This document shows positions 41,161 to 58,850 of a stretch of DNA of 64,000 bases, in pieces (within the stretch, counting starts at the first letter, position 1; each line of letters begins with the position of its first letter). The notes beneath the pieces were generated by a model. That model ran no database searches and was not told the origin of the DNA. It saw nothing but the letters and a program-made list of their open reading frames with translations. The translations under genes were made by a program, and so were the position numbers. This DNA comes from Psychroserpens sp. NJDZ02 (GTDB lineage Bacteria > Bacteroidota > Bacteroidia > Flavobacteriales > Flavobacteriaceae), in the NCBI RefSeq assembly GCF_004843725.1, contig NZ_CP039451.1:1176501-1240500 (forward strand), given 5' to 3'.

Positions 41161-42342
41161 ATGTCCAAGCTTCCAGAGATAACACTATCGCGTATCTACT
41201 TCAAAAAAACGCATCAAATAAAAATAAGTTTTAAATACAACGATCAATTAAAAACTATTTTAAACGCTATACCCAAAGCCTACTGGAGTCAAACATTAAA
41301 CAGCTGGTACATTAAAAATAATCCAGAAAACTTAAAATTATTGTTTTCAGAATTTGAAGATTTAACCGCAATAAATGCTAAAGATGTATTTGACACTAGT
41401 ATGCCACTACATCAATATCCTGATAAAAGAATTAGAAAGATAAGCAAAGACAATAGGCTGATCTTAAATAATTTTTATAAATACTTAAAAGGAAAAAGAT
41501 ACAGTGTAAGCACAATTAACACCTACACACAATTAATAGCCGATTTTATAGAATATCATAACGAGAAAGATACTGAGGCACTAACCAATCGGGATGTAGA
41601 GCTATTTATCGAAACCATTTACATAAAAAGGAATTATAGCATCAGCACACAACGTCAATTTATAAGCGCCCTAAAACTGTTTATTGTATTTTATCCTAGA
41701 ATACAAATTAACGAGATAACATTAGCAAGACCAAAAAAATCTAAAAAATTGCCTGTAATATTATCCTATCAAGAAATGATACTATTATTACAAAACACAA
41801 AAAACATAAAACACCGTATAATCCTAGCCATTTTATATTCGGGAGGATTGAGGATAAGCGAACTAATAAATTTAAAAATAGAACACTTACACATCCAAAG
41901 ACATCAAATATTAATCAAAGACGCCAAAGGACGCAAGGATCGATTTGTGAGTATAGCAAAAAGCATACTCCCGTTATTAGAAAACTACTTGGTGACCTAT
42001 AAACCAAAACTCTATTTAATAGAAGGTCCAAAAAGAGGAAAATACACAGCTAGCAGTGTTCGTAAATTTTTACACAAATCAAGCAAACTTGCCAAAATCA
42101 ACTACATTGTAACACCTCACACATTAAGACACAGCTATGCCACACACTTACTAGAGCAAGGTGTAGGTTTACGCCATATACAAGAATTATTAGGACATAG
42201 CAGACCCGAAACTACCATGATCTACACTCATGTAGCCAGAAAAGATTTATTAGATATAAAAAGCCCGTTAGATAATGCTGTAGAATTATTAAGGAAAAAC
42301 CAAAATCAGGAACAAAAGTTCCACATATCCCGTAATAATTAG
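41161..42342 (+). CDS. XerD-like tyrosine recombinase, probable integron integrase
   Basis: The 393-residue recombinase has an N-terminal extra domain of about 85 residues (RIYFKKTHQIKISFKYND...WYIKNN), a core-binding domain (95-180) and a catalytic domain. Active-site residues are Arg231 (SGGLRISEL), Lys256 (DAKGRKDR), His320 and Arg323 (HTLRHSYATHLL), His346 (LLGHSRPE) and Tyr355. The C-terminus TTMIYTHV ... IKSPLD matches IntI proteins, but the IntI-specific insertion between patches II and III is absent. The gene lies 34 bases before an attI-like junction and reads in the same direction as the cassettes. The role in cassette exchange is inferred from the array. Confidence 0.85.
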   Translation: MSKLPEITLSRIYFKKTHQIKISFKYNDQLKTILNAIPKAYWSQTLNSWYIKNNPENLKLLFSEFEDLTAINAKDVFDTSMPLHQYPDKRIRKISKDNRLILNNFYKYLKGKRYSVSTINTYTQLIADFIEYHNEKDTEALTNRDVELFIETIYIKRNYSISTQRQFISALKLFIVFYPRIQINEITLARPKKSKKLPVILSYQEMILLLQNTKNIKHRIILAILYSGGLRISELINLKIEHLHIQRHQILIKDAKGRKDRFVSIAKSILPLLENYLVTYKPKLYLIEGPKRGKYTASSVRKFLHKSSKLAKINYIVTPHTLRHSYATHLLEQGVGLRHIQELLGHSRPETTMIYTHVARKDLLDIKSPLDNAVELLRKNQNQEQKFHISRNN

Positions 42343-42365
42343 GGGATATTTAGTACTTTAGTCAC

Positions 42366-42390
42366 CATATAACTAGTTAGGTGCAAGCTG
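42366..42390. other. Probable attI site of the cassette array
   Basis: GTTAGGTGC starts at 42376, just after the recombinase gene. Its TTAGGTGC is the left end of cassette 1 and is the exact reverse complement of GCACCTAA at the cassette's right end (45250-45257). The G/TT at 42376/42377 would be the crossover point. No second integrase-binding site is obvious upstream. Confidence 0.65.
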
Positions 42391-42510
42391 AAAAAACCAC
42401 CGCATATTTTAGCACTTTCGTTTTTTGCCAACACATATTTCCTTCGCTTTAAAAAACAAAAGAGCTAAAATTTCCCAACGCTTAAATTATAGATTTCTGA
42501 AAAATAACAT

Positions 42511-42548
42511 TACATTTGACCAAATTAAGTCAAGTCAATAATTGATAC
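42511..42548 (+). promoter_or_regulatory. Promoter and possible C-box of the R-M cassette
   Basis: TACATTTG (42511-42518) fits the -7 consensus. Directly after it GAC, GTC, GTC and GAT blocks occur with regular spacing (42518-42546), like the paired half-sites to which restriction controller proteins bind. The controller gene starts at 42550. Autoregulation is inferred. Confidence 0.45.
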
Positions 42549-42549
42549 A

Positions 42550-42852
42550 ATGACATTAGGACAAAAAATTAAAGAATTAAGGGAACGCAATCAAATGCTT
42601 CAAAGAGAATTAGCTTCGAAACTTGAAGTTGGAGATGGATATTTGAGTAAAATTGAACGTGACCAGAAAATTATTAAAAGAGAACATTTAAAGACATTGA
42701 GTAGTATTTTTAAATATCCTTTAAGAGAACTTGAAGCACTTTGGATTGCAACAAAAATCTATGACATTGTTAAATATGAAGAAACAGGACTAGAAGCTTT
42801 ACGTGTTGCAGAAGAACAAATAAATTATAATAAGACATATGCCAAAATATAA
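42550..42852 (+). CDS. XRE-type controller (C) protein of the R-M system
   Basis: The 100-residue protein is a helix-turn-helix regulator: LGQKIKELRERNQML...LASKLEVGDGYLSKIERDQK. A gene of this type directly before a restriction enzyme gene is typical of C proteins, which delay nuclease expression until methylation is established. It overlaps the nuclease gene by 14 bases. It is the first gene of cassette 1. Confidence 0.82.
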   Translation: MTLGQKIKELRERNQMLQRELASKLEVGDGYLSKIERDQKIIKREHLKTLSSIFKYPLRELEALWIATKIYDIVKYEETGLEALRVAEEQINYNKTYAKI

Positions 42853-43867
42853 TAGAACAATTGAAGAGCTTGAAAAACAAGCAGCCTTATGGTGGCCAGA
42901 AAAATTGAAAGAAAAAAATGCTTTGGCAAATGTTCTACCATTATTGTTAGAAACACAAGACGATTTCCTTAATATTATTAGCTTAAGCAAAAAGGAGCCT
43001 CTTCAGGTATTTGAACTTATCAAAGTTGCTAAATTTCCAGGTAACTTATTTTTAAAACATCTGGTAGTATTATCTGATTATGGTGGAGAACCAATCCAAA
43101 GGTTAGGTAGGTCTTTTACTGATATTTTCCCAAAGGATAAAGAAGAGAACTACTTCTTTGATTTTGTTTGGAAAGCAAAGAAATACAAATACATATTTGA
43201 AACTTTCCCTATTAAAGGTCTGAGTAACAAAAAATTCGGAATTGATGGAGATTCGCTTTCTACAGAAAGAGAACTAGACTCAATGACCAAAGATTTAATC
43301 GCAATACTTCTTTTTGCTTCAACCTCTGATCTTGCAGAACAAGGTGGTCTTGACAGTTGTGAAATTGGAACGTTGCTTGGTAATGAAGTCGAATTAAAAA
43401 ACTTCGTAAAACAAAGATATATTCTTGTAAGTAGAATAACAGGTGGAGCGACAGCAAACAGTCTAGGTCAACTTGCACAATCCGAAATTGTTGATTTCCT
43501 AAATAACGATTTAGGAAAAGGTTATGAAATTACAAGTAATGGAACAATTCACCTTTCTGGATATGATAAAAAAGGAGGAATGCCATTTGACATTGTCGTA
43601 TCAAAAAGAAAAAAGCTAGTTGGAATTGAAGTTAGTTTTCAAGTAACAACTAATAGCACAATTGAAAGGAAAGCAGGTCAAGCAGCAGACCGCTTTAACT
43701 TAATGCATAACGATGGATATAAAATCGGATATGTTTTAGACGGAGCAGGAAACTTCCAACGTTCTTCTGCCTTATCTACTATTTGTACTCATAGCGATTG
43801 TACTGTTGCATATACTCAAGTAGAGTTTAAAGTTTTATCAAATTGGATTAAAAAAGAACTAAAATGA
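42839..43867 (+). CDS. Probable type II restriction endonuclease
   Basis: The 342-residue protein lies between a C protein and a cytosine methyltransferase gene. A PD-(D/E)xK-like core is visible near residue 250: MPFDIVVSKRKKLVGIEVSFQ, with D, E and a following S or Q in place of K. The subsequent STIERKAGQAADRFNLM helix is typical of nuclease folds. Recognition sequence is not deducible. It ends four bases into the methyltransferase gene, so they are coupled. Confidence 0.78.
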   Translation: MPKYNRTIEELEKQAALWWPEKLKEKNALANVLPLLLETQDDFLNIISLSKKEPLQVFELIKVAKFPGNLFLKHLVVLSDYGGEPIQRLGRSFTDIFPKDKEENYFFDFVWKAKKYKYIFETFPIKGLSNKKFGIDGDSLSTERELDSMTKDLIAILLFASTSDLAEQGGLDSCEIGTLLGNEVELKNFVKQRYILVSRITGGATANSLGQLAQSEIVDFLNNDLGKGYEITSNGTIHLSGYDKKGGMPFDIVVSKRKKLVGIEVSFQVTTNSTIERKAGQAADRFNLMHNDGYKIGYVLDGAGNFQRSSALSTICTHSDCTVAYTQVEFKVLSNWIKKELK

Positions 43868-45267
43868 TAAAATTTATAGATTTATTCGCAGGAACTGGAG
43901 GAATTAGACTTGGTTTTGAACAAGCTTGTAAAAAACACGAAATTGAAACAGAATGCGTTTATTCGTCTGAAATAGACAAAAACGCTTGTAAATCTTACGA
44001 GTTGAATTTTGGACACAATCCATATTCTGATATAACAAAAGTAGAAACTCTACCTAATTTTGATTTTATGCTTGCTGGTTTTCCTTGTCAATCATTTTCT
44101 TATGCAGGAAAACAAAGAGGATTTGGAGACACAAGAGGAACTCTATTCTTTGACGTTGAAAGACTTTTAAAAAAGTATAAGCCCAAAGGTTTCATACTTG
44201 AAAATGTTAGAGGACTTACAACGCACGATAAAGGAAGAACTTTTAAAACTATAATCAATTCTTTAGAAGCTATTGGTTATAACGTTGAGTATCGATTAAT
44301 GAATACTAGTAATTTTAACGTACCTCAAAACAGAGTAAGAATATATATTGTTGGAGTTTTAGAACAACCTTTTCAAATAAAACTTAATTCAGACACAGGT
44401 GCTGTTGATTCTCATAATTTCAAAGCTAGAAATGGTCAGCAAAGCCTATTTGAAACTATTGTGAGTAACAAAGTTATTTCAGATTTATTAGAACCAAATC
44501 CACATAAAAAATATTATTGTTCGAAAGAATTTACTAAACAATTAAAATCTGTTATTGGTAAAGATTTGTCTAAATTAAATGGATACAGACTAATAGATAC
44601 AAGAAATGGAAATTCATTACATTCTTGGGAACTTGGAATAAAAGGAAAATGTAATAAAGACGAAATAAATTTTATGAACCTTCTTATTGCGAATAGAAGA
44701 AAAAAAATATTTGGAACTCATCAAGATGGTAAAGCGTTAACACAAGAACAAATTAAAACCTTTTATAAAAAAGATAATTTCAAAGAAGTAACAGAATTAT
44801 TACTTGATAAAGGCTACTTAAGTAATTATGACAATAAATATAATCCTGTTTGTGGAAATATGTCATTTGAAGTTTTTAAATTCCTTGACCCAAATAGTAT
44901 TTCCATAACTCTAACGGCTTCAGATACTAATCGTTTAGGAATAGTTCAAAATGGAAAGGCTAGAAGATTAACTACAAGAGAATGTGCAAGACTTCAAGGT
45001 TTTCCTGAATCTTATAAGCTTTTAGAAAATGACAATGCTGTATACAAACAAATGGGAAATGCAGTTAGTGTTCCAGTAATTGAAGCTTTGACAAATGATT
45101 TGTTAGAGAATAATAAAGGAATATTAGAAAGAAAAGCCAACGCTAAAAGCCATACACTTTTACAATTCGCTGAAGCCACCACACAAACCAAAATTGCAAA
45201 AGAGTATGCCTTTGCCAACGCTAGCAAGTTTATGGAGAAAAAAAAGCCAGCACCTAACAATGTATAA
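43864..45267 (+). CDS. DNA (cytosine-5) methyltransferase
   Basis: The 467-residue 5mC methyltransferase has motif I DLFAGTGGIRLGF, motif IV GFPCQSFSYAG with catalytic Cys75, motif VI ENVRGL, motif VIII FNVPQNRVRIYIVG, and motifs IX-X TTRECARLQGFPE and QMGNAVSVPV. The target-recognition region spans about residues 190-330. The last 50 residues (KANAKSHTLLQFAEATTQTK...) go beyond motif X, and the final PAPNNV codons lie in the R'' box of attC1. Protection of the host against the linked nuclease is expected. Confidence 0.95.
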   Translation: MIKFIDLFAGTGGIRLGFEQACKKHEIETECVYSSEIDKNACKSYELNFGHNPYSDITKVETLPNFDFMLAGFPCQSFSYAGKQRGFGDTRGTLFFDVERLLKKYKPKGFILENVRGLTTHDKGRTFKTIINSLEAIGYNVEYRLMNTSNFNVPQNRVRIYIVGVLEQPFQIKLNSDTGAVDSHNFKARNGQQSLFETIVSNKVISDLLEPNPHKKYYCSKEFTKQLKSVIGKDLSKLNGYRLIDTRNGNSLHSWELGIKGKCNKDEINFMNLLIANRRKKIFGTHQDGKALTQEQIKTFYKKDNFKEVTELLLDKGYLSNYDNKYNPVCGNMSFEVFKFLDPNSISITLTASDTNRLGIVQNGKARRLTTRECARLQGFPESYKLLENDNAVYKQMGNAVSVPVIEALTNDLLENNKGILERKANAKSHTLLQFAEATTQTKIAKEYAFANASKFMEKKKPAPNNV

Positions 45268-45443
45268 AAAACATAGGGCTTTTGTGTTAAATCCAAAGTC
45301 CTGTGCTTATTTACAAAGTCCGCTAAATATAAAATTTGGCATTTAAACGAAAAATAAAGCAAAATATTTATATTTTGCTAAGTGTTAAAACCGAAAGTCA
45401 GTGCTTATCCTCTGCCCTACGTGTTTTATACTAAACGTTAGCT
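45250..45443. other. attC1 (intact, long, about 190 bp)
   Basis: The R'' box GCACCTAAC (45250-45258) is followed by GTATAAAA...GGGC. Near the right end GCCC...TTTTATAC lies before GTTAGC (45437). These outer arms pair over many bases, with an AT-rich centre. The R'' overlaps the last codons of the methyltransferase gene. It contains no intron or IS. Confidence 0.75.
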
Positions 45444-45465
45444 GTAATTTAAAAAAACTCATATA

Positions 45466-46461
45466 ATGAAAAATAACATTTTATTTCTATTTCTATTAAT
45501 TACGATAATCAGTTGTAAGGAAAAAAACGCAAAATCATCAACTAATGAATCAATTCCTAAAGAAACAACTAACGAAAAAATTTACAATGGAACAGGAAAC
45601 GTAACCCAAGGATTAGCGGAAACACAAATTAAAAGTCTTATTTCTTGTAATCGAGGAGGTAGCAGAATTTCAGGAGTTGGAGAAATAAAAGATGATTTAG
45701 GAAATAGTTGGACAGTTCCCGGAATTAATCATTTCAACGAATCGACCAAAGCTTCTGATTTATATAATGAATGTAACTCTATAACACCAAATAATCTTTC
45801 AGAAATAGATATGAATTCCGTTCCTGTCTTTGAGATAGATTCGGACGGAGAAATCATTACAGGCTATCTTTTTGCGGATAATTATTTTGAACTTTACATT
45901 AACGGAAAATTAATAGCAGTTGACCCAGTACCTTTTACACCATTTAATTCAAACATTGTAAAATTCAAAGTAAAAAAACCTTATACAATTGCAGTAAAAC
46001 TAATAGATTGGGAAGAACATTTAGGTTTAGGTTCAGAAAATAATAGAGGAAAAGATTTTCATCCTGGAGATGGAGGTTTTATAGCCAGCTTTAGTGATGG
46101 GACTATTACAAATAGCAAATGGAAAGCACAAACTTTTTATACTGCACCTATTAGTGATTTAAGTTGTTTAAGTGAAATTGGAGAAAAAAGAATCTCTTCA
46201 AATTGCAGTACAGATGGAGTTGATAATGGAACAGCATTTTACGGTATTCATTGGAAAATTCCAGAAAATAGTTTTGACGTTACTTTCAATGACAGCCAAT
46301 GGCCAAATGCGACCACATATACTGAAGATGAAATAGGAGTAAATAATAAAAAAGCATATATGAACTTCATAGAAAAATTTAGTGGAAAAGGTGCTGAATT
46401 TATTTGGTCTACTAATGTCGTTTTGGATAATGAAGTCATTGTTCGTTACAAAGTGGAATAA
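45466..46461 (+). CDS. Cassette 2: lipoprotein of unknown function
   Basis: The 331-residue protein has a lipoprotein signal (MKNNILFLFLLITIISCKEK) followed by a Ser/Asn/Thr-rich stretch and a beta-rich body with SRISGVGEIKDDLG and HPGDGGFIASFSDG. I recognise no named domain. It is the only gene between attC1 and the first intron, starting 28 bases into the cassette. Codon use resembles the AT-rich array and not the core genes. Confidence 0.65.
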   Translation: MKNNILFLFLLITIISCKEKNAKSSTNESIPKETTNEKIYNGTGNVTQGLAETQIKSLISCNRGGSRISGVGEIKDDLGNSWTVPGINHFNESTKASDLYNECNSITPNNLSEIDMNSVPVFEIDSDGEIITGYLFADNYFELYINGKLIAVDPVPFTPFNSNIVKFKVKKPYTIAVKLIDWEEHLGLGSENNRGKDFHPGDGGFIASFSDGTITNSKWKAQTFYTAPISDLSCLSEIGEKRISSNCSTDGVDNGTAFYGIHWKIPENSFDVTFNDSQWPNATTYTEDEIGVNNKKAYMNFIEKFSGKGAEFIWSTNVVLDNEVIVRYKVE

Positions 46462-46473
46462 AAACTACAGCTA

Positions 46474-48327
46474 ATCGAGTAGACGGCTCCGACTAAAATA
46501 GCCGGAGTGCGCCTCTCACACCACCGCACGTACGGGTCTCGTATACGGCGGTTCACCAAATTGAAGTTTGCGTATTATTAATATAATCTAACAAAGGTTT
46601 ATACCCTTTTCGTTTAAGCCTAGAAGTTGTGATAGTAGTCTTTAAAATAGGACTTTGAGCTACTGCCCAACCTCCCATTCTTGTTCTACTCCAAGCATAA
46701 GCTTGCCCTGCCTCTATACCTAATTGAATCAAGTTTTTACGCTTACGTTCTAGTTTCTTCCAATCGTGCCAAATACAATAGCGTAATCGATTTCTTAACC
46801 ATTCATCTAGCTTTTTACTTTTTGCATAGATGTTTGTTAAGCGATAATTAGTCATCCAGCCTCGGCAGACTTGGTTAAGCCGTTCAAGACGTTCTAACAA
46901 CGACATCGGTTTGGTTTTCTTGGTGATACTTTTTAGATTACGTTTAAACTTTGCCCAACTGTTCTTAGCTACCACTAATGCATATTGTCCTTTCACTCCC
47001 TTTTTATAAATGGGCACAAAACCATGTCCGAGTAACTCAAAATTTACAGGTCTACGCAGGCCACTTTTGGCTTTATTTATAGGTAATTTAAGTCTGTCTC
47101 TTAAAAAGACAAACAGTTTGTTTCCTATTTGTTTCGCCTCGCTTTTACTTTTAGCGTAAACACTAAAATCATCAGCATATCGCACATAACGCAAGCCCAT
47201 ACTTTTCATTTCTTTGTCCAATACATCTAACATAATATTAGATAATAAGGGACTTATTGGACTGCCTTGCGGGATTCCTTTTCTGCGCTTTTTGAGTCTT
47301 CCATTTATTAAAATGGGAACTCTTAGCCATTTTCGGATTAACCGTAAGGTGGTTGGACATTTTACCTTGTGGTAAATAAGTTGTAGTAAAATACAGTGGT
47401 CTACTTGATCAAAGAATCCTTTTAAATCAATATCTACAATATCTTGGTAACCTGAATTGATATACGTTTGAGCCTGCAGTACTGCTTTTTGGATGTTCTT
47501 TTGTGGGCGGAAGCCGTAACTAACAGGTTCAAAATCATACTCAAAATGAACCATTAATTGCTGACTTACCGCCTGTTGTAGCCATCTATCTACTACCGTG
47601 GGTATTCCTAAAAGTCTAGTTTTACCTTGTCCTTTTGGAATGCTTACCCCTAATATTGGTTTTGGAGTATAGCGGTTTTCTCGAATAGTGGATAGTAGTA
47701 TTGAACGGTTTTCTAATATATATTTAGAAAGCTTCGTTGTTTTCATACCATCTACACCGCTCGCACCTTTATTGCGCTCCACTTGTCGTGTTGCTTTATA
47801 AAGGTTTGGTGCTGATAATACATTTTCAATCATAGGGTTAATAATACGTGTACTCCTGTTGCTCTAAAACTAGGCTAGCTAAGCATCCTAATCGAATGAC
47901 AACGTAATTTAATGTTCAGTCCTTCCTTACTTGTGAGACCTATGGGGGTTTCCCAACTCGTGTCCTGTAAGTACTATGACTTCTGCTGACTTCTCCAAAT
48001 AGTCAACTCGTAACTTTGGAGACCTCCCCAGGTAATGGCATCTTCTTTCACTCAATCACTGCCGTATCTACATAATTACCCTTTTGGTACTGTTTGGGCG
48101 TTACAATGATGTGCTTGCTTACCCGAATAACTATGCCTCTGTATACGATTTCTGTTCGTCAGTACCGAGTTTTGTAGTTCCGCTTCCTTCAGATGTAACC
48201 TCGCGGTTACCACCCTTGCGACTTACTAATGCTTCAAGACGTTACTCCTGCGCATAAGGGACTTGCACCCTCTAGATTAATTATTTACCTTTAGGTAAAT
48301 TAAAAGATGCCCATGCTGGGCACACAC
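46474..48327 (-). mobile_element. Group II intron 1 (encodes RT), in attC2
   Basis: Read on the minus strand, the element starts GTGTGTGCCCAGCATGGGC, a GUGYG-type 5' end. It ends with domains V/VI (AACCGCCGTATACG..., CTCCGGC/GTCGGAG hairpin) and CTCGAT. It is 1854 bases long, and the RT gene occupies domain IV. It interrupts the R'' box of attC2: removing it joins CAGCTA to ACAGTATAT, restoring AGCTAAC, which pairs with TTAGCTG at the start of cassette 2. The intron reads antisense to the cassettes, like IIC-attC introns of class 1 integrons. Confidence 0.9.
46553..47833 (-). CDS. Group II intron reverse transcriptase/maturase
   Basis: The 426-residue protein has RT motifs: GASGVDGM, RLLGIPTVVDRWLQQAV, YGFRP, VDIDLKGFFD, KRRKGIPQGSPISPLLSN and the catalytic YADD in VRYADDFSVY. 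The maturase region (GWMTNYRLTN) is followed by a short Trp-rich tail (YAWSRTRMGGWAVAQSPIL). No C-terminal HNH endonuclease is present, as in IIC introns, so target priming would need a nicked or single-stranded site such as a folded attC. It could also act on the four ORF-less introns in the array. Confidence 0.94.
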   Translation of the reverse strand: MIENVLSAPNLYKATRQVERNKGASGVDGMKTTKLSKYILENRSILLSTIRENRYTPKPILGVSIPKGQGKTRLLGIPTVVDRWLQQAVSQQLMVHFEYDFEPVSYGFRPQKNIQKAVLQAQTYINSGYQDIVDIDLKGFFDQVDHCILLQLIYHKVKCPTTLRLIRKWLRVPILINGRLKKRRKGIPQGSPISPLLSNIMLDVLDKEMKSMGLRYVRYADDFSVYAKSKSEAKQIGNKLFVFLRDRLKLPINKAKSGLRRPVNFELLGHGFVPIYKKGVKGQYALVVAKNSWAKFKRNLKSITKKTKPMSLLERLERLNQVCRGWMTNYRLTNIYAKSKKLDEWLRNRLRYCIWHDWKKLERKRKNLIQLGIEAGQAYAWSRTRMGGWAVAQSPILKTTITTSRLKRKGYKPLLDYINNTQTSIW

Positions 48328-48455
48328 ACAGTATATAATTTATAGCTAGCTTCTCGCCTACTTACGAAAGTCCTCGCGGACTTTCTTGGTCGGTAATTAT
48401 TTACTAAATTAGTTGCTTAAAACACGCAACAAACCATATACAACAACGTTGGCGT
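48328..48455. other. attC2, right part (left fragment at 46466-46473)
   Basis: The left fragment CTACAGCTA lies at 46465-46473 before the intron. The right fragment has GTATATAATT, then internal hairpin GAAAGTCC/GGACTTTC, ATATAC, and the core GTTGGCG (48448). Reconstituted length is about 130 bases. L'' (GTATAT) pairs with L' (ATATAC). Confidence 0.75.
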
Positions 48456-48471
48456 GCATTAAAAAAAAAAT

Positions 48472-49470: not shown

Positions 49471-49471
49471 C

Positions 49472-49669
49472 GACACGCCAACAATGGCTATAATTAATTC
49501 GGATTTTGGTGCTTAACCCAAAGTGAAGTGCCTTGAATTAAGTCCGCAAAATTTTCAATTTTGCGTGACTATTGAAATAAAGATAAAATTAAAAATTTGG
49601 CTAAGTGCAAGTCCGAAAGTTAACTGCTTTTAATTCCCGAACTAACCATAGCCGAGACGTTGGCAGTAA
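49472..49669. other. attC3 (intact, long, about 195 bp)
   Basis: GACACGCCAAC (49472-49482) pairs with GTTGGCGTGC at the left end of cassette 3. TGGCTAT and ATAGCC are the inner L boxes. AATTCGG and CCGAAC lie further in. The core is GTTGGCAG (49659). Uninterrupted by intron or IS. Confidence 0.75.
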
Positions 49670-52091: not shown

Positions 52092-52142
52092 AACTAAATA
52101 TACGAAATTTCTATATCTTTAACAACACGTTGTGCAACAGGC

Positions 52143-52271
52143 ACACCGTGTATAATTCATTGCTAGTTCTAGCCTACTTGGAAATTCCTTCGGAATTTCC
52201 TCTGGTTCGTTTTAGTTTACTAATTTAGTTGCTGAAACACGCAACGAAATCATACACAAACACGTTGTGCA
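52143..52271. other. attC4, right part (left fragment at 50428-50441)
   Basis: ACTGCCAAC (50429-50437) pairs with TTGGCAGT at the left end of cassette 4. The right part holds ACACCGTGTATAATT, a GGAAATTCC/GGAATTTCC hairpin, ATACAC and the core GTTGTGC (52264). Without the IS it would be about 135 bases. Confidence 0.72.
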
Positions 52272-52300
52272 TAATGTCTCACTCAGACCAAAAAACCTAA

Positions 52301-53164
52301 ATGAAAAAAGAATTAAATAATAAATACGAAATTAGGTTAGATTTTAAAAGAGAAACTGAAAATCCAAGTAGACTTTTTAGAGCTTTTACTGAAATGATTG
52401 ATGGTGTAAATAATTTAGACCATTTGATAGCGGAAACGGTTAATAGTTCTGTAAAATCTAAAATAGTTTTAGATGATATTGAAAAAGGTTCAATAATTGG
52501 TAGATTTTGGAGTGCTTTGACAATTAATGAAGATAGTAAAATTGATAACTCACCAGAGAATGAAGAAATTGAAGAATACATTGAGGAATCTCGCGCTGAA
52601 ACTTTAAAGTTCATTTCAGAGAAAAAATCATCTGTTGAAGACCTTAAAGAATTAGCTAATAACTTAAAAAAAATTGCTGAAGAAAAATCATTAGCAGATT
52701 CTTTTAATTATGCGGAACACGATATTCTAAAATTAGCAAAAACTATAAATAAAATTAATGAATCTACAGAAGAGCTTAACGAAAAAGAGTCTTTTGAATT
52801 GAAATCTGAAAATAGAGAAATAAAGAATATTAAATCCGGAACAGAAAAAATTGATATTGATGCTGTTGAAAACGCACTAACTGAAAATGAAATAGTGAAT
52901 GAAACAGAAATGATATATTTAATAAAAAAACCAGACTTCTTAGGAGATTCTGCTTGGTCTTTCAAACACGGAAATAAATCAGCTTCTATAAAAATTTCTC
53001 ATTTAGAATGGTTAGAAAAATTTCATTCAGGAAAAATAATAGTAGTTCCTGGAGATTCATTAAAAGTAAAAGTTAAACAAACCTCGAAATATAATACAAA
53101 TGGTTATTTGATATCAGATAAGTTAGAAATCATTAAAGTATTAGACGTAATTCATAACAATTAA
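52301..53164 (+). CDS. Cassette 5, gene 1: unknown cytoplasmic protein
   Basis: The 287-residue protein begins with a conserved-looking alpha/beta motif (YEIRLDFKRETENPSRLFRAFTEMIDGVNNLDHLIAETV) followed by VLDDIEKGSIIGRFW. The middle is charged and helical, and the C-terminal 80 residues are beta-rich. I do not recognise a family. Its stop and the next ATG share one base (TAATG), so the pair is translationally coupled and probably works together. Confidence 0.7.
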   Translation: MKKELNNKYEIRLDFKRETENPSRLFRAFTEMIDGVNNLDHLIAETVNSSVKSKIVLDDIEKGSIIGRFWSALTINEDSKIDNSPENEEIEEYIEESRAETLKFISEKKSSVEDLKELANNLKKIAEEKSLADSFNYAEHDILKLAKTINKINESTEELNEKESFELKSENREIKNIKSGTEKIDIDAVENALTENEIVNETEMIYLIKKPDFLGDSAWSFKHGNKSASIKISHLEWLEKFHSGKIIVVPGDSLKVKVKQTSKYNTNGYLISDKLEIIKVLDVIHNN

Positions 53165-53571
53165 TGAAAGTAGACAAAACTATAACATATATTCTATCAT
53201 CTGAATTTCTATTTACATTGTTACCCATTGTTATTTTAGTGATGGTTCGACTATTTCAAAATGACTTTCAATCAATTTTTTATAATACAGAATGGTCAGT
53301 AATAGCAATAATATTATTTGGACAATCCGTTGTGAAATTTTCATCAGGTATTTCTAATACAAATGAACAAGTAAGGTGGCAATTTGTTGCTTTAATTATT
53401 TCATTAATAATTATCTTTGGTTTGGTACCTTCTGTAATAATATTGATTTTAAACTTAATTAATACCGAAATACATTTTGGAATGTACATTGCTCAATTTA
53501 TTATATTTTTAATAAGCTGTTTTGTCTTTTTTATAGTTGGTTCTATTGGACAAAAAATGTTAGACGAATAA
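53164..53571 (+). CDS. Cassette 5, gene 2: small membrane protein
   Basis: The 135-residue protein has four membrane segments (ILSSEFLFTLLPIVILVMVR, WSVIAIILFGQSVVKF, FVALIISLIIIFGLVPSVIILIL, AQFIIFLISCFVFFIVGSIG). It is coupled to the preceding cytoplasmic protein. A sensor plus membrane effector pair would fit a defence role, but this is inference only. Confidence 0.7.
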   Translation: MKVDKTITYILSSEFLFTLLPIVILVMVRLFQNDFQSIFYNTEWSVIAIILFGQSVVKFSSGISNTNEQVRWQFVALIISLIIIFGLVPSVIILILNLINTEIHFGMYIAQFIIFLISCFVFFIVGSIGQKMLDE

Positions 53572-53585
53572 AAACACTATGCACA

Positions 53586-54229
53586 ATCGAGTAGACGGCT
53601 CCGACTAAAATAGCCGGAGTGCGCCTCTCACACCACCGTACATAAGTAACTGCGTTGGTCCTTTCGTCTCTATTGCTACCAGCAATAGCACTCAGGAACA
53701 TATACGGCGGTTCGTAAATCATCACGCCAAAGCTCTTTTCACCCTTGACACTATCTTCTAATTTAGGCATAGGCTACCACTAGTGCTCCTATGCGAATTT
53801 TGAAGAGAATTACGTTCAGTCCTTCCTTACTTGTGAGACCTTCTGAGGTATTGCCTCAACTCGTTTCCTGTAAGTACTATGACTTCTGCTGACTTCTCCA
53901 TATAGTCAACTCGTAACTTTGGAGACCTCCCCAGGTAATGGCATCCTCTTTCACTCAATCACTGCCGTATCTACATAATTACCCTTTTGTTACTGTTTGG
54001 GCGTTACAATGATGTGCTTGCTTACCCGAATAACTATGCCTCTGTATACGATTTCTGTTCGTCAGTACCGAGTTTTGTAGTCTCGCTTCCTTCAGATAAA
54101 ACCTCACGGTTTTCACCCTTGCGACTTACTAATGCTTCAAGACGTTACTCCTGCGCATAAGGGACTTGCACCCTCTAGATTAATTATCTACCTTTAGGTA
54201 AATAAAAGATGCCCATGCTGGGCACACAC
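53586..54229 (-). mobile_element. ORF-less group II intron 2, in attC5
   Basis: The element has 644 bases on the minus strand, starting GTGTGTGCCCAGCATGGGC and ending CTCGAT as intron 1 does. Domain IV is a short hairpin (GCATAGG/CCTATGC) with no RT. Removal joins TGCACA to ACCGTATAT, restoring GCACAAC. Domain V carries a 60-base apical insertion at 53641-53700 in place of the 13-base loop of introns 1, 3 and 5. Mobility and splicing would need the intron 1 maturase. Confidence 0.87.
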
Positions 54230-54357
54230 ACCGTATATAATTTATTGCTGGCTTCTCGCCTACTTACGAAAGTCCTCGCGGACTTTCTTGGTTGGTAATT
54301 ATTTACTAAATTAGTTGCTTGAAACACGCAACAAACCATATACAACAACGTTACCAC
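54230..54357. other. attC5, right part (left fragment at 53576-53585)
   Basis: Almost identical to attC2: GTATATAATT, GAAAGTCC/GGACTTTC hairpin, ATATAC. The core is GTTACCAC (54350). The left fragment CTATGCACA pairs with TTGTGCATA at the start of cassette 5. Confidence 0.75.
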
Positions 54358-54372
54358 ACATTTGAAAAAATA

Positions 54373-55029
54373 TTGAGAACAACAATAACAATATTGCTAA
54401 TTTTAATTTCGGGTCTTATCTACGCACAAGGAAACGGTCTTTATAAATTTCAATCCGAAAACAACAAGTATGGTTTTATGGACAAAAATGGAAATATTAA
54501 AATAAAGCCAGAATACATATTTGTAAATGACTTCGATGGAGGTATTTGTAAAGTTTCAAAAGAAATCATTGAAGGAAGTTATAAGTGGATTGTTATTGAC
54601 ACATTAGGAAAAATTAAAGATTCAAGAACAAAAAAAACTTTCAACTCGCTTAAATATAGTAGTTCGAAAACAAAAGGTATGACAGAATTCAAATCTGATA
54701 AGTTCTTTCCTTTCCAAAAAAATCAACTATTAGGTTTTAAAGACGAACAAAACAAAGTAATAATTGAACCTAAATTTTATAAGATAGATAAATTTCAAAA
54801 CGGAGTTTGCGCTGTAAGAATAAACAAAGTGGAATTTGAATTTGAATTTGCAAATGATTATTTCTTTGATGCGCTCATTGACGAAAACGGAAAAATTTTA
54901 ATCGAAATCGAAATGCATAGTTATATGGGTTTTCAAGGAGATTTAATTGAATTCTATGGTGGACCACACTTTATGGGTGGAGTATATTATCTGAATAAAA
55001 ACGGAAAGAAAATTAACCCAACGGAATAA
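54373..55029 (+). CDS. Cassette 6: secreted WG-repeat protein
   Basis: The 218-residue protein starts at TTG 54373, 23 bases into the cassette; the longer frame to 54319 would start inside attC5. The signal peptide is MRTTITILLILISGLIYAQ. WG-repeat units are visible (YGFMDKNGNIKIKPEYIFVNDFDGGICKV; GFKDEQNKVIIEPKFYKIDKF). WG proteins form beta-sheet repeats and often bind protein or carbohydrate. Function is unknown. Confidence 0.72.
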   Translation: MRTTITILLILISGLIYAQGNGLYKFQSENNKYGFMDKNGNIKIKPEYIFVNDFDGGICKVSKEIIEGSYKWIVIDTLGKIKDSRTKKTFNSLKYSSSKTKGMTEFKSDKFFPFQKNQLLGFKDEQNKVIIEPKFYKIDKFQNGVCAVRINKVEFEFEFANDYFFDALIDENGKILIEIEMHSYMGFQGDLIEFYGGPHFMGGVYYLNKNGKKINPTE

Positions 55030-55042
55030 AAAACGTGAGGTA

Positions 55043-55639
55043 ATCGAGTAGACGGCTCCGACTAAAATAGCCGGAGTGCGCCTCTCACACCACCGTACAT
55101 ACGGGTCTCGTATACGGCGGTTCGTAAATCATCACGCCAAAGCTCTTTTCACCCTTGACACTATCTTCTAATTTAGGCATAGGCTACCACTAGTGCTCCT
55201 ATGCGAATTTTGAAGAGAATTACGTTCAGTCCTTCCTTACTTGTGAGACCTTCTGAGGTATTGCCTCAACTCGTTTCCTGTAAGTACTATGACTTCTGCT
55301 GACTTCTCCATATAGTCAACTCGTAACTTTGGAGACCTCCCCAGGTAATGGCATCCTCTTTCACTCAATCACTGCCGTATCTACATAATTACCCTTTTGT
55401 TACTGTTTGGGCGTTACAATGATGTGCTTGCTTACCCGAATAACTATGCCTCTGTATACGATTTCTGTTCGTCAGTACCGAGTTTTGTAGTCTCGCTTCC
55501 TTCAGATAAAACCTCACGGTTTTCACCCTTGAGACTTACTAATGCTTCAAGACGTTACTCCTGCGCATAAGGGACTTGCACCCTCTAGATTAATTATCTA
55601 CCTTTAGGTAAATAAAAGATGCCCATGCTGGGCACACAC
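55043..55639 (-). mobile_element. ORF-less group II intron 3, in attC6
   Basis: The element has 597 bases with the same ends, hairpins and core as intron 2 but without the domain V insertion. Removal joins GAGGTA to AACGTGTAT, giving GGTAAACG, one base off the GGTAAC expected from TTACC at the start of cassette 6. Either attC6 mutated or the junction base varied. Confidence 0.85.
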
Positions 55640-55766
55640 AACGTGTATATTTAATTGCTGGTTCTGTGTGTACTCGGAAAATCCTACGGATTTTCCTCTG
55701 GTTCGTTTTCTTTTACTAATTTAGTTGCTAGCCAACGCAACTAACCATACACGAAGCCGTTAGCAA
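55640..55766. other. attC6, right part (left fragment at 55034-55042)
   Basis: CGTGTATATTT and CATACACG pair as L boxes. A GGAAAATCC/GGATTTTCC hairpin is central. The core is GTTAGC (55759). Confidence 0.7.
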
Positions 55767-55786
55767 AAAGCGAAAAACCAATCTTT

Positions 55787-56218
55787 ATGAAAATAAAATT
55801 TAAGAAAAAAAGATTAATTGCGAATCTAATACTCGGAATAGTTTGGATTGGACTCGGAACTTTTAATGTTCTGGAAGATGACAATTTGCGTTGGTCTGAT
55901 TATGGATATTTGGTTATAGGAATTTTATATGTCGGACATTATTTATACGATTTGACAAATCAATACCTGACAGTTGAAAACGGAACTATTCGGAAAAACG
56001 GACTTTATGGTTTCGGAAAAAAAATAAACCTGAACGAAATTAATTGGATTAAAAAGTTTGCTGGAGATTATACTTTGAAAACAGAAACGAAGGAATTAAA
56101 AATCAATACGGAATTGATTGACGAGAACTCGCTTATTGAATTGAATAGTATTTTAGGAAAACTGAATTTACCATCTGATAAAACGCCATTTGCTAATCGA
56201 GTAGACGGCTCCGACTAA
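55787..56218 (+). CDS. Cassette 7: small membrane protein with PH-like tail
   Basis: The 143-residue protein has two membrane helices (residues 11-27 and 38-56) followed by a soluble beta-rich part (YLTVENGTIRKNGLYGFGKKINLNEINW), like bacterial PH-domain membrane proteins. The final seven residues, NRVDGSD, are encoded across the junction and inside intron 4, as the frame runs into the intron and stops there. The original C-terminus is lost or was shorter. Confidence 0.65.
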   Translation: MKIKFKKKRLIANLILGIVWIGLGTFNVLEDDNLRWSDYGYLVIGILYVGHYLYDLTNQYLTVENGTIRKNGLYGFGKKINLNEINWIKKFAGDYTLKTETKELKINTELIDENSLIELNSILGKLNLPSDKTPFANRVDGSD

Positions 56219-56839
56219 AATAGCCGGAGTGCGCCTCTCACACCACAGTACATAAGTAACTGCGTTGGTCCTTTCGTCTCTATTGCTACCAGCAATAGCA
56301 CTCAGGAACATATACGGCGGTTCGTAAATCATCACGCCAAAGCTCTTTTCACCCTTGACACTATCTTCTAATTTAGGCATAGGCTACCACTAGTGCTCCT
56401 ATGCGAATTTTGAAGAGAATTGCGTTCAGTCCTTCCTTACTTGTGAGACCTTCTGAGGTATTGCCTCAACTCGTTTCCTGTAAGTACTATGACTTCTGCT
56501 GACTTCTCCATATAGTCAACTCGTAACTTTGGAGACCTCCCCAGGTAATGGCATCCTCTTTCACTCAATCACTGCCGTATCTACATAATTACCCTTTTGT
56601 TACTGTTTGGGCGTTACAATGATGTGCTTGCTTACCCGAATAACTATGCCTCTGTATACGATTTCTGTTCGTCAGTACCGAGTTTTGTAGTCTCGCTTCC
56701 TTCAGATAAAACCTCACGGTTTTCACCCTTGCGACTTACTAATGCTTCAAGACGTTACTCCTGCGCATAAGGGACTTGCACCCTCTAGATTAATTATCTA
56801 CCTTTAGGTAAATAAAAGATGCCCATGCTGGGCACACAC
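56196..56839 (-). mobile_element. ORF-less group II intron 4, in attC7
   Basis: The element has 644 bases, near-identical to intron 2, including the domain V insertion (56251-56311). One visible difference is CACCACAGTAC in place of CACCACCGTAC in the domain V stem. Removal joins TGCTA to ATCGTATAA. The start of cassette 7 is TTAGCAAA, which pairs with TTTGCTAA at the end. Confidence 0.86.
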
Positions 56840-56965
56840 ATCGTATAAAAATAATTGCGGTTTAGTGCTTAACCAAAGGTCGTTGCGTGTTTGTAACGTC
56901 TGATTTTCCTTCGGAAAATCCTCGCATACAAACCCGCAACTATTCTTATACATAAACGTTGTGTG
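56840..56965. other. attC7, right part (left fragment at 56188-56195)
   Basis: CGTATAAAAATAATTGCGG pairs with CGCAACTATTCTTATAC as L boxes. GATTTTCC/GGAAAATC is the internal hairpin. The core is GTTGTGTGC (56958). Confidence 0.7.
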
Positions 56966-56976
56966 CAACCTGAAAA

Positions 56977-58077
56977 ATGATAAACGTAATAGTTTTAGAT
57001 ACAAATATCCTTCGCGGATTAGGACCAAATTTTTTTGATAAAATTGATTATATCAGTTTGCAAGAATATTGCTACTCTTCAGCATCCGAAATAATAATTC
57101 CTAATGCAGTCTTACTTGAATATTTAGACTATTACAAAAGAGAAATTATTCAAAAAAATCTCAATGAAATTGAGCAATCTTATTCAAAATTATTCAAATT
57201 AGAAAAGTTCGGTAAAGCCTTAAAACCAAACTTGAATAATTATGCCAAAGAACAATTAGAGTTTATTGAAAACAAATTAACCGAAAATAGATTACGCCCA
57301 TTTTTAAATCCATTTCTATCTGAAAATGAATTGTTGGAATTTTTAATAGAAAACAAACAAGAGATTAAAAAAGACAATACTAGAGATTTTATTATTTGGT
57401 CGAATACAATGGAGATTGGAGAAAAATACTCTGACGAACAGGTAGCGCTAATTTCGAACGATAAAATCTTTAAAGAAAATAAGTTTTTTGAAAAAATAAG
57501 AGTAAAAAGAAAAATTGAAAATTTAAAAATTTTCGATTCAATTGCTAGTTTTTTAAGTATTTATGGCTTCAAATCGGAAAATCTAAATAAAGAATTAATA
57601 ACAAAATCAATTCCAATTTCAACAATTAAAAAGGAATTAAAAAAAGACAAAAACTCGATTCCGAGCCACATAAGCAAATATTATTATCATTCTCGAAAAA
57701 ATTTCAAATTGGAAGAATTTGAGATACAGCAATTGGAAATTGAAGAATATTACGCTCATAAGGAAACTAAAACAGGCATAATAAAAGTAATTGTTCACGT
57801 AAACGTCAAAGTAAAGATGGTGTTTGAACCAGAGAAAGATTTAGAGAAATTAAGTGAGTATCTAAATAACGTGGATAATAAGAAAGATTTTTATCCAAAT
57901 TCATTTGACAAAGATGGTCGCCCAATTTTTGACGATTGGATACTTTTTCATTTTGGATTAGAATTTAATGAAACGGAACAAAAAATAGAAAAGACTGAAT
58001 TTTATGATTTTTTCCCTGAAGATGCTAATTTCAGAAGAATGAAGGCAGCACACAATCGAGTAGACGGCTCCGACTAA
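56977..58077 (+). CDS. Cassette 8: PIN-domain protein (DUF4935-like)
   Basis: The 366-residue protein has an N-terminal PIN fold: INVIVLDTNILRGLG with the first acidic residue Asp8, IIPNAVLLEYLDYYK with Glu, and DFIIWSNTMEIG and VALISNDKIF further on. PIN domains are RNases, and this DUF4935-type is expected to cleave RNA. The C-terminal half is unknown. The last residues NRVDGSD come from intron 5, so the tail is intron-derived. Confidence 0.78.
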   Translation: MINVIVLDTNILRGLGPNFFDKIDYISLQEYCYSSASEIIIPNAVLLEYLDYYKREIIQKNLNEIEQSYSKLFKLEKFGKALKPNLNNYAKEQLEFIENKLTENRLRPFLNPFLSENELLEFLIENKQEIKKDNTRDFIIWSNTMEIGEKYSDEQVALISNDKIFKENKFFEKIRVKRKIENLKIFDSIASFLSIYGFKSENLNKELITKSIPISTIKKELKKDKNSIPSHISKYYYHSRKNFKLEEFEIQQLEIEEYYAHKETKTGIIKVIVHVNVKVKMVFEPEKDLEKLSEYLNNVDNKKDFYPNSFDKDGRPIFDDWILFHFGLEFNETEQKIEKTEFYDFFPEDANFRRMKAAHNRVDGSD

Positions 58078-58724
58078 AATAGCCGGAGTGCGCCTCTCAC
58101 ACCACCGTACATACGGGTCTCGTATACGGCGGTTCGTAAATCATCACGCCAAAGCTCTTTTCACCCTTGGCACTATCTTCTAATTTAGGCATAGGCTACC
58201 ACTAGTGCTCCTATGCGAATTTTGAAGAGAATTACGTTCAGTCCTTCCTTACTTGTGAGACCGTCGGAGGTATTGCCTCAACTCGTTTCCTGTAAGTACT
58301 ATGACTTCTGCTGACTTCTCCATATAGTCAACTCGTAACTTTGGAGACCTCCCCAGGTAATGGCATCCTCTTTCACTCAATCACTGCCGTATCTACATAG
58401 TTACCCTTTTGTTACTGTTTGGGCGTTACAAAGGTGTGCTTGCTTACCCGAATAACTATGCCTCTGTATACGATTTCTGTTTAGTTTATGCTGAGCGTAG
58501 ACGAAGGGTCAGTACCGCCTTCTGTAGTGGTATTTGCTCATTAATCAATCACAAATAGCCTTCAGATGTAACCTCGCGATTACCTCCCTTGCGACTTACT
58601 AATGGTTCAATAAGCCTGTCCTGAGCGTAGCCGAAGGATTACTCCTGCGCATAAGGGACTTGCACCCTCTAGATTAATTATTTACCTTTAGGTAAATTAA
58701 AAGATGCCCATGCTGGGCACACAC
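58055..58724 (-). mobile_element. ORF-less group II intron 5, in attC8
   Basis: The element has 670 bases with the same ends and domain V as introns 1 and 3. Compared with the others it has two short insertions holding CTGAGCGTAG...CGAAGG (58489-58508 and 58615-58638), plus a replaced stretch near 58509-58555. Removal joins CACACA to ACCGTGTAT, restoring CACAAC, which pairs with TTGTGTGC at the start of cassette 8. Its folding may be impaired. Confidence 0.84.
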
Positions 58725-58850
58725 ACCGTGTATAATTAATGGCTGGTTTTAGCTTACTTACAAAAGTCCTTACAGACTTTCTATCTGTGATTTATTTGCT
58801 AACTTTAGTACTTAAATAACGCAACTAATCTTTTACAATCACGTTGGCAT
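58725..58850. other. attC8, right part; end of the array (left fragment at 58047-58054)
   Basis: CCGTGTATAATT is the left inner box. The right inner box, TTTTACAATCACG, is more degenerate than in the other sites. The core is GTTGGCATT (58843). The stop of the next gene begins 15 bases later, so this is the distal boundary of the array. Confidence 0.65.

What the first reader, a model, noticed from the sequence alone, without database searches (positions are those of the whole stretch)
41161..58850. Integron-like cassette array run by a XerD-like recombinase in a flavobacterium
A tyrosine recombinase gene is followed by eight consecutive modules with one or more unrelated genes each, all in the same direction, separated by attC-like imperfect palindromes. 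The recombinase ends TTMIYTHV...IKSPLD like IntI but lacks the IntI-specific insertion between patches II and III. It has an extra N-terminal domain and points toward the cassettes instead of away from them. Integrons are described mainly in Proteobacteria, with intI divergent from the cassettes; same-direction arrangements are rare. Seen directly: gene order, boxes, motifs. Inference: that this recombinase moves these cassettes.
Basis: partly seen in the sequence, partly recalled or inferred. Interest (0 to 1): 0.95.

Follow-up and report, generated by a model that had tools for sequence, protein, structure and literature searches.

The report
Flavobacterial integron without IntI integrase
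This flavobacterial chromosome carries a gene-capture array whose cassettes and insertion site look like those of an integron, but the recombinase beside them, which likely moves them, lacks the helix considered essential for integron integrases, and five of the array's recombination sites are each interrupted by a group II intron.

Summary
Nine units (42377-58843) follow an attI motif found in 44 of 47 type-1 loci (window included). Units obey the cassette rule: each start is complementary to its own R'' (139 units: 5.3 of 7; shuffled 2.6).

Covariance models built only from this genome's attC sites find sites downstream of the same recombinase across Flavobacteriaceae and none upstream; R1 finds none in 1.06 Mb of controls. 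Three same-genus genomes with 3.5 kb or more downstream share flank and recombinase but no cassette.

The recombinase lacks the IntI I2 insertion, has an N-terminal domain most like XPB-DRD/HARP (modest scores) and forms a clade apart from IntI (joint clade not rejected). Most attC sites lack extrahelical bases and carry conserved G·T wobbles that make the bottom-strand hairpin the stabler one.

Genome-wide: 128 attC matches in 20 clusters, 39 introns with both ends (33 ORF-less).

Recombination is inferred, not shown. Best filed as an integron variant with a non-IntI integrase.

The parts
41161..42342 (+). XerA/XerD-like tyrosine recombinase, 393 aa: N-terminal XPB-DRD/HARP-like domain (about residues 6-64), SAM-like core-binding domain, catalytic domain without the I2 insertion
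42354..42378 (+). attI: TACTTTAGTCACCATATAACTAGTT; crossover G|TT between 42376 and 42377 (inferred)
   Evidence: Core motif, one mismatch allowed, in 44 of 54 loci examined (44 of 47 type-1, window included); conservation stops at GTT in the 11 loci aligned
42377..45437 (+). Cassette 1: HTH controller 42550-42852, BanI-like restriction enzyme 42839-43867, C5-cytosine methylase 43864-45267 (a predicted whole type II R-M system in one cassette)
   Evidence: start GTTAGGTGC is complementary to R'' GCACCTAAC
45250..45446 (+). attC1 (long type, uninterrupted)
   Evidence: R2, 179 bits; this site is one of the 13 that built R2
45438..48448 (+). Cassette 2: protein of unknown function 45466-46461, attC2 split by intron 1
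46474..48325 (-). Group IIC intron 1, 1852 nt, with IEP (RT + maturase, 46553-47833)
48326..48454 (+). attC2, right part (L'' to R'), short type
48449..49659 (+). Cassette 3: DUF2806 protein 48472-49470
49474..49668 (+). attC3 (long type, uninterrupted)
   Evidence: R2, 171 bits; one of the 13 that built R2
49660..50448 (+). Cassette 4: DUF6794 protein 49692-50423
50431..50456 (+). attC4, reduced: R'' and R' with almost nothing between
   Evidence: read directly; not found by the models
50449..52264 (+). Cassette 5: IS1182-like transposase 50532-52091 on the minus strand
52132..52275 (+). attC5 (short type, uninterrupted)
   Evidence: R1, 112 bits; not among the sites that built R1
52265..54350 (+). 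Cassette 6: LAPAL-family protein 52301-53164 and a small predicted protein 53164-53571; attC6 split by intron 2
53586..54227 (-). ORF-less group IIC intron 2, 642 nt, extended domain V loop
54228..54356 (+). attC6, right part
54351..55759 (+). Cassette 7: WG-repeat protein (ORF 54319-55029; a start codon inside the cassette is likely); attC7 split by intron 3
55043..55637 (-). ORF-less group IIC intron 3, 595 nt
55638..55765 (+). attC7, right part
55760..56958 (+). Cassette 8: 55787-56218 (last codons and stop supplied by intron 4); attC8 split by intron 4
56196..56837 (-). ORF-less group IIC intron 4, 642 nt, extended domain V loop
56838..56964 (+). attC8, right part
56959..58843 (+). Cassette 9: PIN-domain protein 56977-58077 (end supplied by intron 5); attC9 split by intron 5
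58055..58722 (-). ORF-less group IIC intron 5, 668 nt, with REP-like inserts
58723..58849 (+). attC9, right part; end of the array
   Evidence: R1, 114 bits

Best explanation
By its sequence features this is a sedentary chromosomal integron of the Flavobacteriaceae in which a XerA-like tyrosine recombinase without the IntI-specific I2 helix likely captures and excises gene cassettes at an attI site next to its gene, using attC sites whose bottom strand is predicted to fold into the stabler hairpin.

Shown by sequence: the recombinase, a conserved attI whose conservation ends at G|TT, cassettes that each carry their own complementary start and R'', attC stems with compensatory changes, and different cassettes at the same locus in relatives.

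Inferred: that crossover takes place at G|TT of R' on the folded bottom strand; that G·T wobbles, instead of extrahelical bases, mark the bottom strand; that the N-terminal XPB-DRD/HARP-like domain, which would be a structure-reading DNA-binding fold, does the work that I2 does in IntI; and that cassettes are read from promoters upstream, since the recombinase and the cassettes point the same way.

A group IIC retroelement has spread into the attC sites. The intron-encoded proteins likely act in trans on the many ORF-less copies, which would insert by reverse splicing at TGT|T of the bottom strand.
For: (1) Cassette rule: in 139 consecutive-attC units from 36 loci, the start is complementary to the unit's own R'' at 5.32 of 7 positions. 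Shuffled pairings give 2.59 (sd 0.12, maximum 2.96 of 2000) and the next unit's start gives 2.57.

(2) attI: the core motif (one mismatch allowed) is found in 44 of 54 loci examined, being 44 of 47 type-1 (window included) and 0 of 7 type-2. In the 11 loci aligned, conservation stops at GTT.

(3) Linkage: models R1 and R2, built only from this genome, gave 186 and 103 rows in 54 loci, none upstream of the recombinase. R1 gave 0 in 66 control loci, 1.06 Mb.

(4) Same site, different cargo: five same-genus genomes share the upstream genes and the recombinase. In the three with 3.5 kb or more downstream (G202, G204, G206) no cassette protein of the window matches over 40% of its length; the other two hold only 131 and about 725 bp downstream.

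(5) Own genome: 128 attC matches in 20 clusters, one copy of this recombinase and no IntI over the TIGR02249 cut-off.

(6) Strand: the bottom hairpin is the stabler in 52 of 54 own sites and 144 of 147 relatives' sites. Extrahelical-type bulges occur in 2 of 52, 2 of 147 and 0 of 13 sites, against 12 of 14 canonical attC under the same method. A finder that uses no model points the same way on few sites: 2 of 13 against 9 of 10.

(7) Introns: 39 of 40 intron starts abut an attC match. The IEP is nearest to GsI-IIC RT.
Against: No recombination was observed. Cassette exchange is inferred from species representatives, not strains.

Mesonia aestuariivivens (L095) has the recombinase with 10 kb downstream but neither attC nor attI. 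In two of the five same-genus genomes the recombinase is broken: an in-frame stop in G202 and two overlapping pieces in G204.

The absence of extrahelical bases is not universal: 8 of 114 sites in a set that included weak matches have such a bulge, 5 of them in L170, and another attC class has a bulged T on the opposite arm. Two or more G·T wobbles are present in only 18 of the 48 weak matches, though at least one is in all 114. The models that picked the sites were built from sites that carry these wobbles, so there is selection bias, and two model-free finders returned too few sites to settle it (13 sites; 4 to 6). In the class-defining study, loss of extrahelical bases cut attI x attC integration only about 6-fold (PMC2727003, passages), so they are not an absolute need for capture even in IntI systems.

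41 of 139 units fail the cassette rule at 6 of 7, probably in part because introns cut R'' and missed sites join units. Five of the 44 attI motifs lie 156-226 bp after the stop codon and some may be chance.

Confidence: 0.85

Rival explanations
1. The attC arrays are CALIN-like remnants moved in the past by a true IntI supplied from elsewhere; the adjacent recombinase is a bystander (for example a Xer-type or island integrase).
For: PMC7790495 (part 1 of 10 read) states that I2 is necessary for cassette capture and found in no other protein. Most attC clusters in this genome (19 of 20) are not next to the recombinase.
Against: Arrays begin right after this recombinase in many genera, with the attI motif in 44 of 54 loci. 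No IntI passes the TIGR02249 cut-off in this genome. Most sites lack the extrahelical bases that IntI needs for attC x attC exchange (PMC2727003 passages).
Confidence: 0.08
2. The cell's own XerC/XerD recombine the cassettes, as in other Xer-dependent elements, and the adjacent recombinase only assists.
For: The genome holds two further Xer-like recombinases (35% and 32% identity), and the core AACnAGTT of attI resembles a Xer core site (my reading; the comparison is recalled).
Against: attI adjoins the gene of this recombinase in 44 of 54 loci; the two Xer-like genes at 0.556 and 3.374 Mb lie outside the 20 attC clusters.
Confidence: 0.05
3. Static repeat region: gene units separated by repeats spread by the group II introns or by homologous recombination among repeats, with no site-specific recombinase at work.
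For: Introns and an IS element sit in many sites and could drive rearrangement.
Against: Relatives without a detected intron, such as G068 (L153), have arrays of the same kind (only 3 intron candidates were scored per genome). The cassette rule and the sharp attI boundary are not expected from repeat recombination.
Confidence: 0.02

Closest known systems
Integron with IntI integrase (class 1-3 and sedentary chromosomal integrons, e.g. the Vibrio cholerae superintegron)
   Same: attI beside the recombinase gene, cassettes in one direction, R''/R' boxes RYYYAAC and GTTRRRY, crossover at G|TT inferred, cassette start complementary to its own R'', bottom-strand hairpin.
   Different: Integrase lacks I2 and lies outside the IntI clade; attC mostly without extrahelical bases and with conserved G·T wobbles; recombinase points toward the cassettes; added N-terminal domain.
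Treponema-type reversed integron
   Different: Treponema genes are described as intI; the present recombinase has no IntI insertion. I did not align Treponema IntI.
XerA/XerC/XerD
   Same: Best PDB sequence matches are the archaeal XerC-like recombinase 4a8e and XerA 5hxy; the NCBIfam best hit is recomb_XerA_Arch, 203 bits against a cut-off of 220.
   Different: Extra N-terminal domain, a linked attI and cassette array; the genome has two other Xer-like proteins.
Integron-like subgroup of tyrosine recombinases (PMC8138268)
   Different: In the passages read they are not described as running cassette arrays; I could not check which sequences were meant.
Group IIC-attC introns (e.g. S.ma.I2)
   Same: Insert in R'' of the attC bottom strand at TTGT/T, opposite to the cassette genes (PMC7923331 part 1 of 7); IEP of IIC type without an endonuclease domain.
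   Different: Here 33 of 39 copies with both ends are ORF-less and nearly all of those share one domain IV segment, in the Flavobacteriaceae; PMC4424553 calls ORF-less introns rare in bacteria (passages).

Membership tests
Integron (element) | attC sites with R''/R' boxes and foldable bottom strand between cassettes | tested here: met
   17-pair consensus helix over 20 short sites, 5 pairs with double compensatory changes
Integron (element) | attI next to the recombinase gene, conserved up to the crossover | tested here: met
   44 of 54 loci examined; misses are L079, L086, L095 and all 7 type-2 loci
Integron (element) | Cassettes exchanged as units: own start complementary to own R''; variable content at one locus | tested here: met
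   139 units, 98 at 6 or 7 of 7; 5 same-genus genomes, 3 of them with 3.5 kb or more downstream
Integron (element) | Site-specific recombination of cassettes by the linked recombinase | not testable with these tools
   needs a recombination assay
IntI integron integrase | IntI-specific additional domain (I2) between the conserved boxes | tested here: not met
   63-68 aa against 106-107 in 14 of 15 rows grouped as IntI after that measurement (87 in L149)
IntI integron integrase | Falls inside the IntI clade | tested here: inconclusive
   separate clades, each 100/100 (IntI 100/100, Bacteroidota 99/94); a joint clade is not rejected (AU p 0.296)
IntI integron integrase | Partner attC sites carry extrahelical bases on the R''-L'' arm | tested here: not met
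   2 of 52 own, 2 of 147 relatives' strong sites, 8 of 114 when weak sites of 17 loci are included (5 in L170); canonical control 12 of 14
Group IIC intron | IEP nearest to IIC reverse transcriptases, no endonuclease domain | tested here: met
   best PDB match GsI-IIC RT 307 bits, 7uim 298 bits; LtrA 122 bits
Group IIC-attC intron | Insertion in the attC bottom strand at TTGT/T | tested here: met
   39 of 39 copies with both ends have T first in the 3' exon, 37 with TGT and 2 with TCT last in the 5' exon; in other genera mostly the same, with exceptions such as L236 and L162
Group IIC-attC intron | Belongs to the described IIC-attC lineage by phylogeny | not tested
   no named IIC-attC IEP was at hand

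The most novel reading that the evidence does not exclude
Bacteroidota run a second, separately evolved class of integron. Its recombinase, a XerA-like enzyme with an N-terminal XPB-DRD/HARP-like domain, recombines single-stranded attC hairpins without the I2 helix and without extrahelical bases, and picks the bottom strand by conserved G·T wobbles and the asymmetric spacer. The I2 helix would then not be the only route to single-strand cassette recombination, and surveys that define integrons by I2 would have missed a family-wide gene-capture system.
Probability: 0.45. Interest if true: 0.95.

Novelty: new variant of a known kind. Interest (0 to 1): 0.88.

Why it matters
The I2 helix and the extrahelical bases of attC are regarded as the innovation that made integrons possible: PMC7790495 (part 1 read) says that I2 is necessary for capture and found in no other protein, and PMC2727003 (passages) that attC x attC exchange fails without extrahelical bases. 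A natural system that lacks I2 and mostly lacks those bases makes that view directly testable. It also gives the Flavobacteriaceae a widespread gene-capture machine: 91 of 199 family genomes (the own one and the second subfamily included) have a recombinase match at E 1e-60, while PMC9024848 (passages) names only Salinibacter ruber for a complete integron in Bacteroidetes proper. Tools that require the IntI insertion would list its arrays as orphan clusters. The intron load (39 of 128 attC matches) is a fine natural experiment on ORF-less ribozymes that are likely mobilised in trans.

Tried and rejected
Model-free attC finders were too strict for these AT-rich sites. One search gave 13 sites in 25 loci (extrahelical-type bulge in 2; two wobbles five pairs apart in 7) against 10 canonical sites (bulge in 9, such wobbles in 0), with 2 upstream and 1 opposite-strand hits as background. 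One search gave 4 to 6 sites (no bulge; wobbles in 3 to 5) and no canonical site. They agree with the wobble claim but are too few to settle it. The generic finder served for the canonical controls only: 14 of its sites in 5 of 16 loci were used, the weaker ones left out by eye.

A clean rule that arrays follow the replication direction was rejected: cluster strands are mixed in the positive-skew half. For intron occupancy, 36 of 93 sites in one orientation and 3 of 35 in the other hold an intron (Fisher p 0.001). The sites are not independent, the skew came from sampled stretches, and the 3.84-3.87 Mb cluster lies near the switch, so this is exploratory.

Nesting of the recombinase inside IntI was not found, but common origin is not excluded. 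The 546-nt intron at 2.97 Mb looks like an internally deleted full-length copy, not the common ORF-less type. The HARP Pfam match is in 1 of 13 family members only (E 6.5e-5 on the domain alone; 7.8e-4 on the whole protein).

Literature: ten searches of the open PMC library, terms on Bacteroidetes/Bacteroidota, Flavobacteri-, Winogradskyella, integron-like, attC and group IIC-attC. No listed title or abstract start describes such integrons in Flavobacteriaceae; the lists were cut (20 of 32, 20 of 29, 10 of 193, 12 of 26). Preprints and most subscription papers are not held.

Full report
WHAT IS THERE. The recombinase ORF is 41161-42342 (+). It is followed by nine units that end at 58843. I read the unit limits from the recombination boxes: each unit begins at TTRRRY after a G and ends with an attC whose R'' is complementary to the unit's own start. 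Examples: GTTAGGTGC at 42376 with GCACCTAAC at 45250, GTTAGCTGTA with TACAGCTAA(C), GTTGGCGTG with CACGCCAAC; units 7 to 9 match less fully. Cassette 1 is a predicted complete BanI-like type II restriction-modification system with an HTH controller. The others encode a protein of unknown function, a DUF2806 protein, a DUF6794 protein, an IS1182-like transposase, a LAPAL-family protein with a small partner, a WG-repeat protein, a small protein without a family match and a PIN-domain protein.

Five of the nine attC sites are split by group II introns on the minus strand. One carries a reverse transcriptase/maturase (46553-47833, TIGR04416) closest in the PDB to GsI-IIC RT (307 bits) and without an endonuclease domain in Pfam. 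The other four are ORF-less, 595-668 nt. All sit at one place in R'', between RYYYA and AC of the top strand. Searching the own genome (one contig, 4,319,537 bp) with an ORF-less probe gave 40 matches (40 of 69 candidates scored). In the stretches fetched, 39 copies have both ends: 6 long ones (1851-1855 nt; one search lists 6 intact protein genes) and 33 ORF-less (453-716 nt). Nearly all ORF-less copies share one domain IV segment, so they likely stem from one deletion derivative moved in trans (inferred). The IEP occurs in 11 of 199 family genomes, the own one included, at E 1e-70; the one-contig genome G125 holds 19 matches, 13 of them at 93-94% identity. Introns of other genera also mostly sit in attC-like sites (exceptions such as L236). 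G204 of the same genus has 17 intron matches but no close IEP, the best being 31% identical.

IS IT MORE THAN CHANCE. I built covariance models from attC sites of this genome only: R1 from 20 short sites and R2 from 13 long ones. RNAalifold gives 17 contiguous pairs for the short type, 5 with double changes. Genome-wide, R1 and R2 find 84 and 68 matches at E 0.01 (150 candidates scored in each search). The union is 128 in 20 clusters, and 39 of 40 intron starts abut one of them. R1 finds 0 matches at E 0.1 in 66 control loci, 46 of them from outside the Flavobacteriaceae and 20 from this genome (1.06 Mb); R2 was not run on the controls.

LINK TO THE RECOMBINASE. In 54 loci around relatives of the recombinase (20 from unnamed family genomes, 34 named), R1 and R2 gave 186 and 103 rows at E 0.1. 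None lies upstream of the recombinase, and apart from weak mirror matches on the opposite strand all have the orientation in which cassettes follow the recombinase. In the same-genus set one weak match (L203, E 0.067) has the other orientation. Of the 34 named loci (L073-L106), 19 have at least one site. Of the 15 without, 14 hold at most 1343 bp of downstream DNA, and the fifteenth, Mesonia aestuariivivens L095, holds 10 kb and is a true negative. L083 has one weak match only (E 0.01). Of the 20 unnamed loci, 18 have sites; L158 and L159 end within about 220 bp. L155 repeats L074. Many drafts break just downstream of the recombinase, as repeats would cause.

FIXED SITE, CHANGING CARGO. Five same-genus genomes (G199, G201, G202, G204, G206) keep the neighbours (M16 peptidase, EamA, metal-binding protein) and the recombinase in order, with recombinase identity 59-92%. 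In G204 it matches in two overlapping pieces and in G202 it has an in-frame stop, so it is broken in two of the five. tblastn of the window's proteins against these stretches, listing hits over 40% of a protein's length, finds no cassette protein; the only hits past the recombinase are the IS transposase and the gene at 62572-64002 beyond the window array, met in G204. Only G202 (3.5 kb), G206 (10 kb) and G204 (about 36 kb) hold enough downstream DNA to count; the nearest relative, G201, has 131 bp and G199 about 725 bp. Outside the genus the only other cargo hits were a 29% partial methylase match in L155 and the IS in L157.

attI. After the stop codon, 11 aligned loci share TAYnTTWRTC..CATATAAYnAGTT, and conservation ends at GTT. 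Searching 54 loci for the core, one mismatch allowed, gave 44 hits: 44 of 47 type-1 loci, the window included (misses L079, L086, L095), and 0 of 7 type-2 loci. Five hits lie 156-226 bp after the stop codon and could be chance. Five of the type-2 loci show instead a palindrome before the GTT (read by eye).

CASSETTE RULE. For 139 pairs of consecutive sites in 36 loci, the seven bases after GTT match the complement of the seven before AAC of the same unit at 5.32 positions on average (98 of 139 at 6 or 7). Shuffles give 2.59, sd 0.12, and the start of the next unit gives 2.57. This is the mark of units that travel with their own start and end. It is the strongest sequence evidence for site-specific cassette movement.

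attC WITHOUT EXTRAHELICAL BASES. With one method, 12 of 14 canonical attC sites beside proteobacterial IntI show a one- or two-base bulge on the R''-L'' arm; in the site-by-site print-out these are mostly the known G and T. This occurs in 2 of 52 own short sites (two of 54 were too short to test), 0 of 13 long ones and 2 of 147 strong sites of relatives. Instead two G·T pairs stand in a helix whose neighbours covary: 52 of 54 and 134 of 147 at the first position, 49 of 54 and 146 of 147 at the second. On the top strand these would be A·C mismatches; the bottom hairpin is the stabler in 52 of 54 and 144 of 147. Limits: the models were trained on sites with these wobbles. In a wider set of 114 sites from 17 loci, which adds 48 weak matches, at least one such G·T is in 114, two or more in 75, and 8 have an extrahelical-type bulge, 5 of them in L170. 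The rule is therefore strong in the main class and not universal.

MECHANISM. [quoted passage not shown] The crossover place is inferred from the attI boundary and the cassette rule; strand, chemistry and domain roles are inferred too. Papers used: PMC7790495 part 1 of 10 (I2 necessary for capture and docking extrahelical bases), PMC2727003 passages (extrahelical bases; attC x attC fails without them, attI x attC falls about 6-fold), PMC9668308 passages (archaeal integrons have the IntI domain), PMC3607928 one passage (Treponema intI points toward the cassettes), PMC7923331 part 1 of 7 and a few passages (group IIC-attC, TTGT/T), PMC4424553 and PMC8919778 passages (ORF-less introns rare in bacteria; lagging-strand bias), PMC8138268 passages (insertion not fully conserved in the integron-like subgroup).

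NOVELTY. As an element it meets the sequence tests for an integron that I ran, with the misses told above. As an enzyme it fails the defining IntI feature. I file it as a new variant of a known kind, with the bolder reading (a second, separately evolved integron class) left open.

Noticed in passing
window 53586-54227, 56196-56837; own genome copies near 49352, 394023, 984191, 3858419 (C1): ORF-less introns with about 47 extra bases in the apical loop of catalytic domain V, present at several different attC sites, so the variant seems to have kept moving although that loop is normally short.
   Followed up: partly
window 56218 and 58077: Two cassette genes read into the antisense end of the intron, which supplies the same last residues (NRVDGSD) and the stop codon.
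   Followed up: no
window 50532-52091; L204 7268-8824 and 13523-15061; L157 9078-10619: IS1182-like transposases repeatedly lie close beside an attC match, as if the insertion sequence targets attC or travels as a cassette.
   Followed up: partly
L102, L105, L106, L206, L207 just after the recombinase: A second subfamily of the recombinase (34-37% identity) has attC arrays but a different attI, a palindrome followed by the crossover GTT.
   Followed up: partly
own genome, 20 attC clusters: Introns are commoner in attC sites of one orientation relative to GC skew (36 of 93 against 3 of 35), as expected of lagging-strand insertion; exploratory.
   Followed up: partly
L161, L206, L076, L153, L102, L164: The same attC class with a bulged T on the R'-L' arm occurs in loci from several genera, a hint that cassettes are exchanged between genera.
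   Followed up: no
L204 15824-17000; L209 3486-4610: In same-genus genomes G204 and G202 the recombinase is broken (two overlapping pieces, and an in-frame stop), so some arrays of this genus may be frozen.
   Followed up: partly
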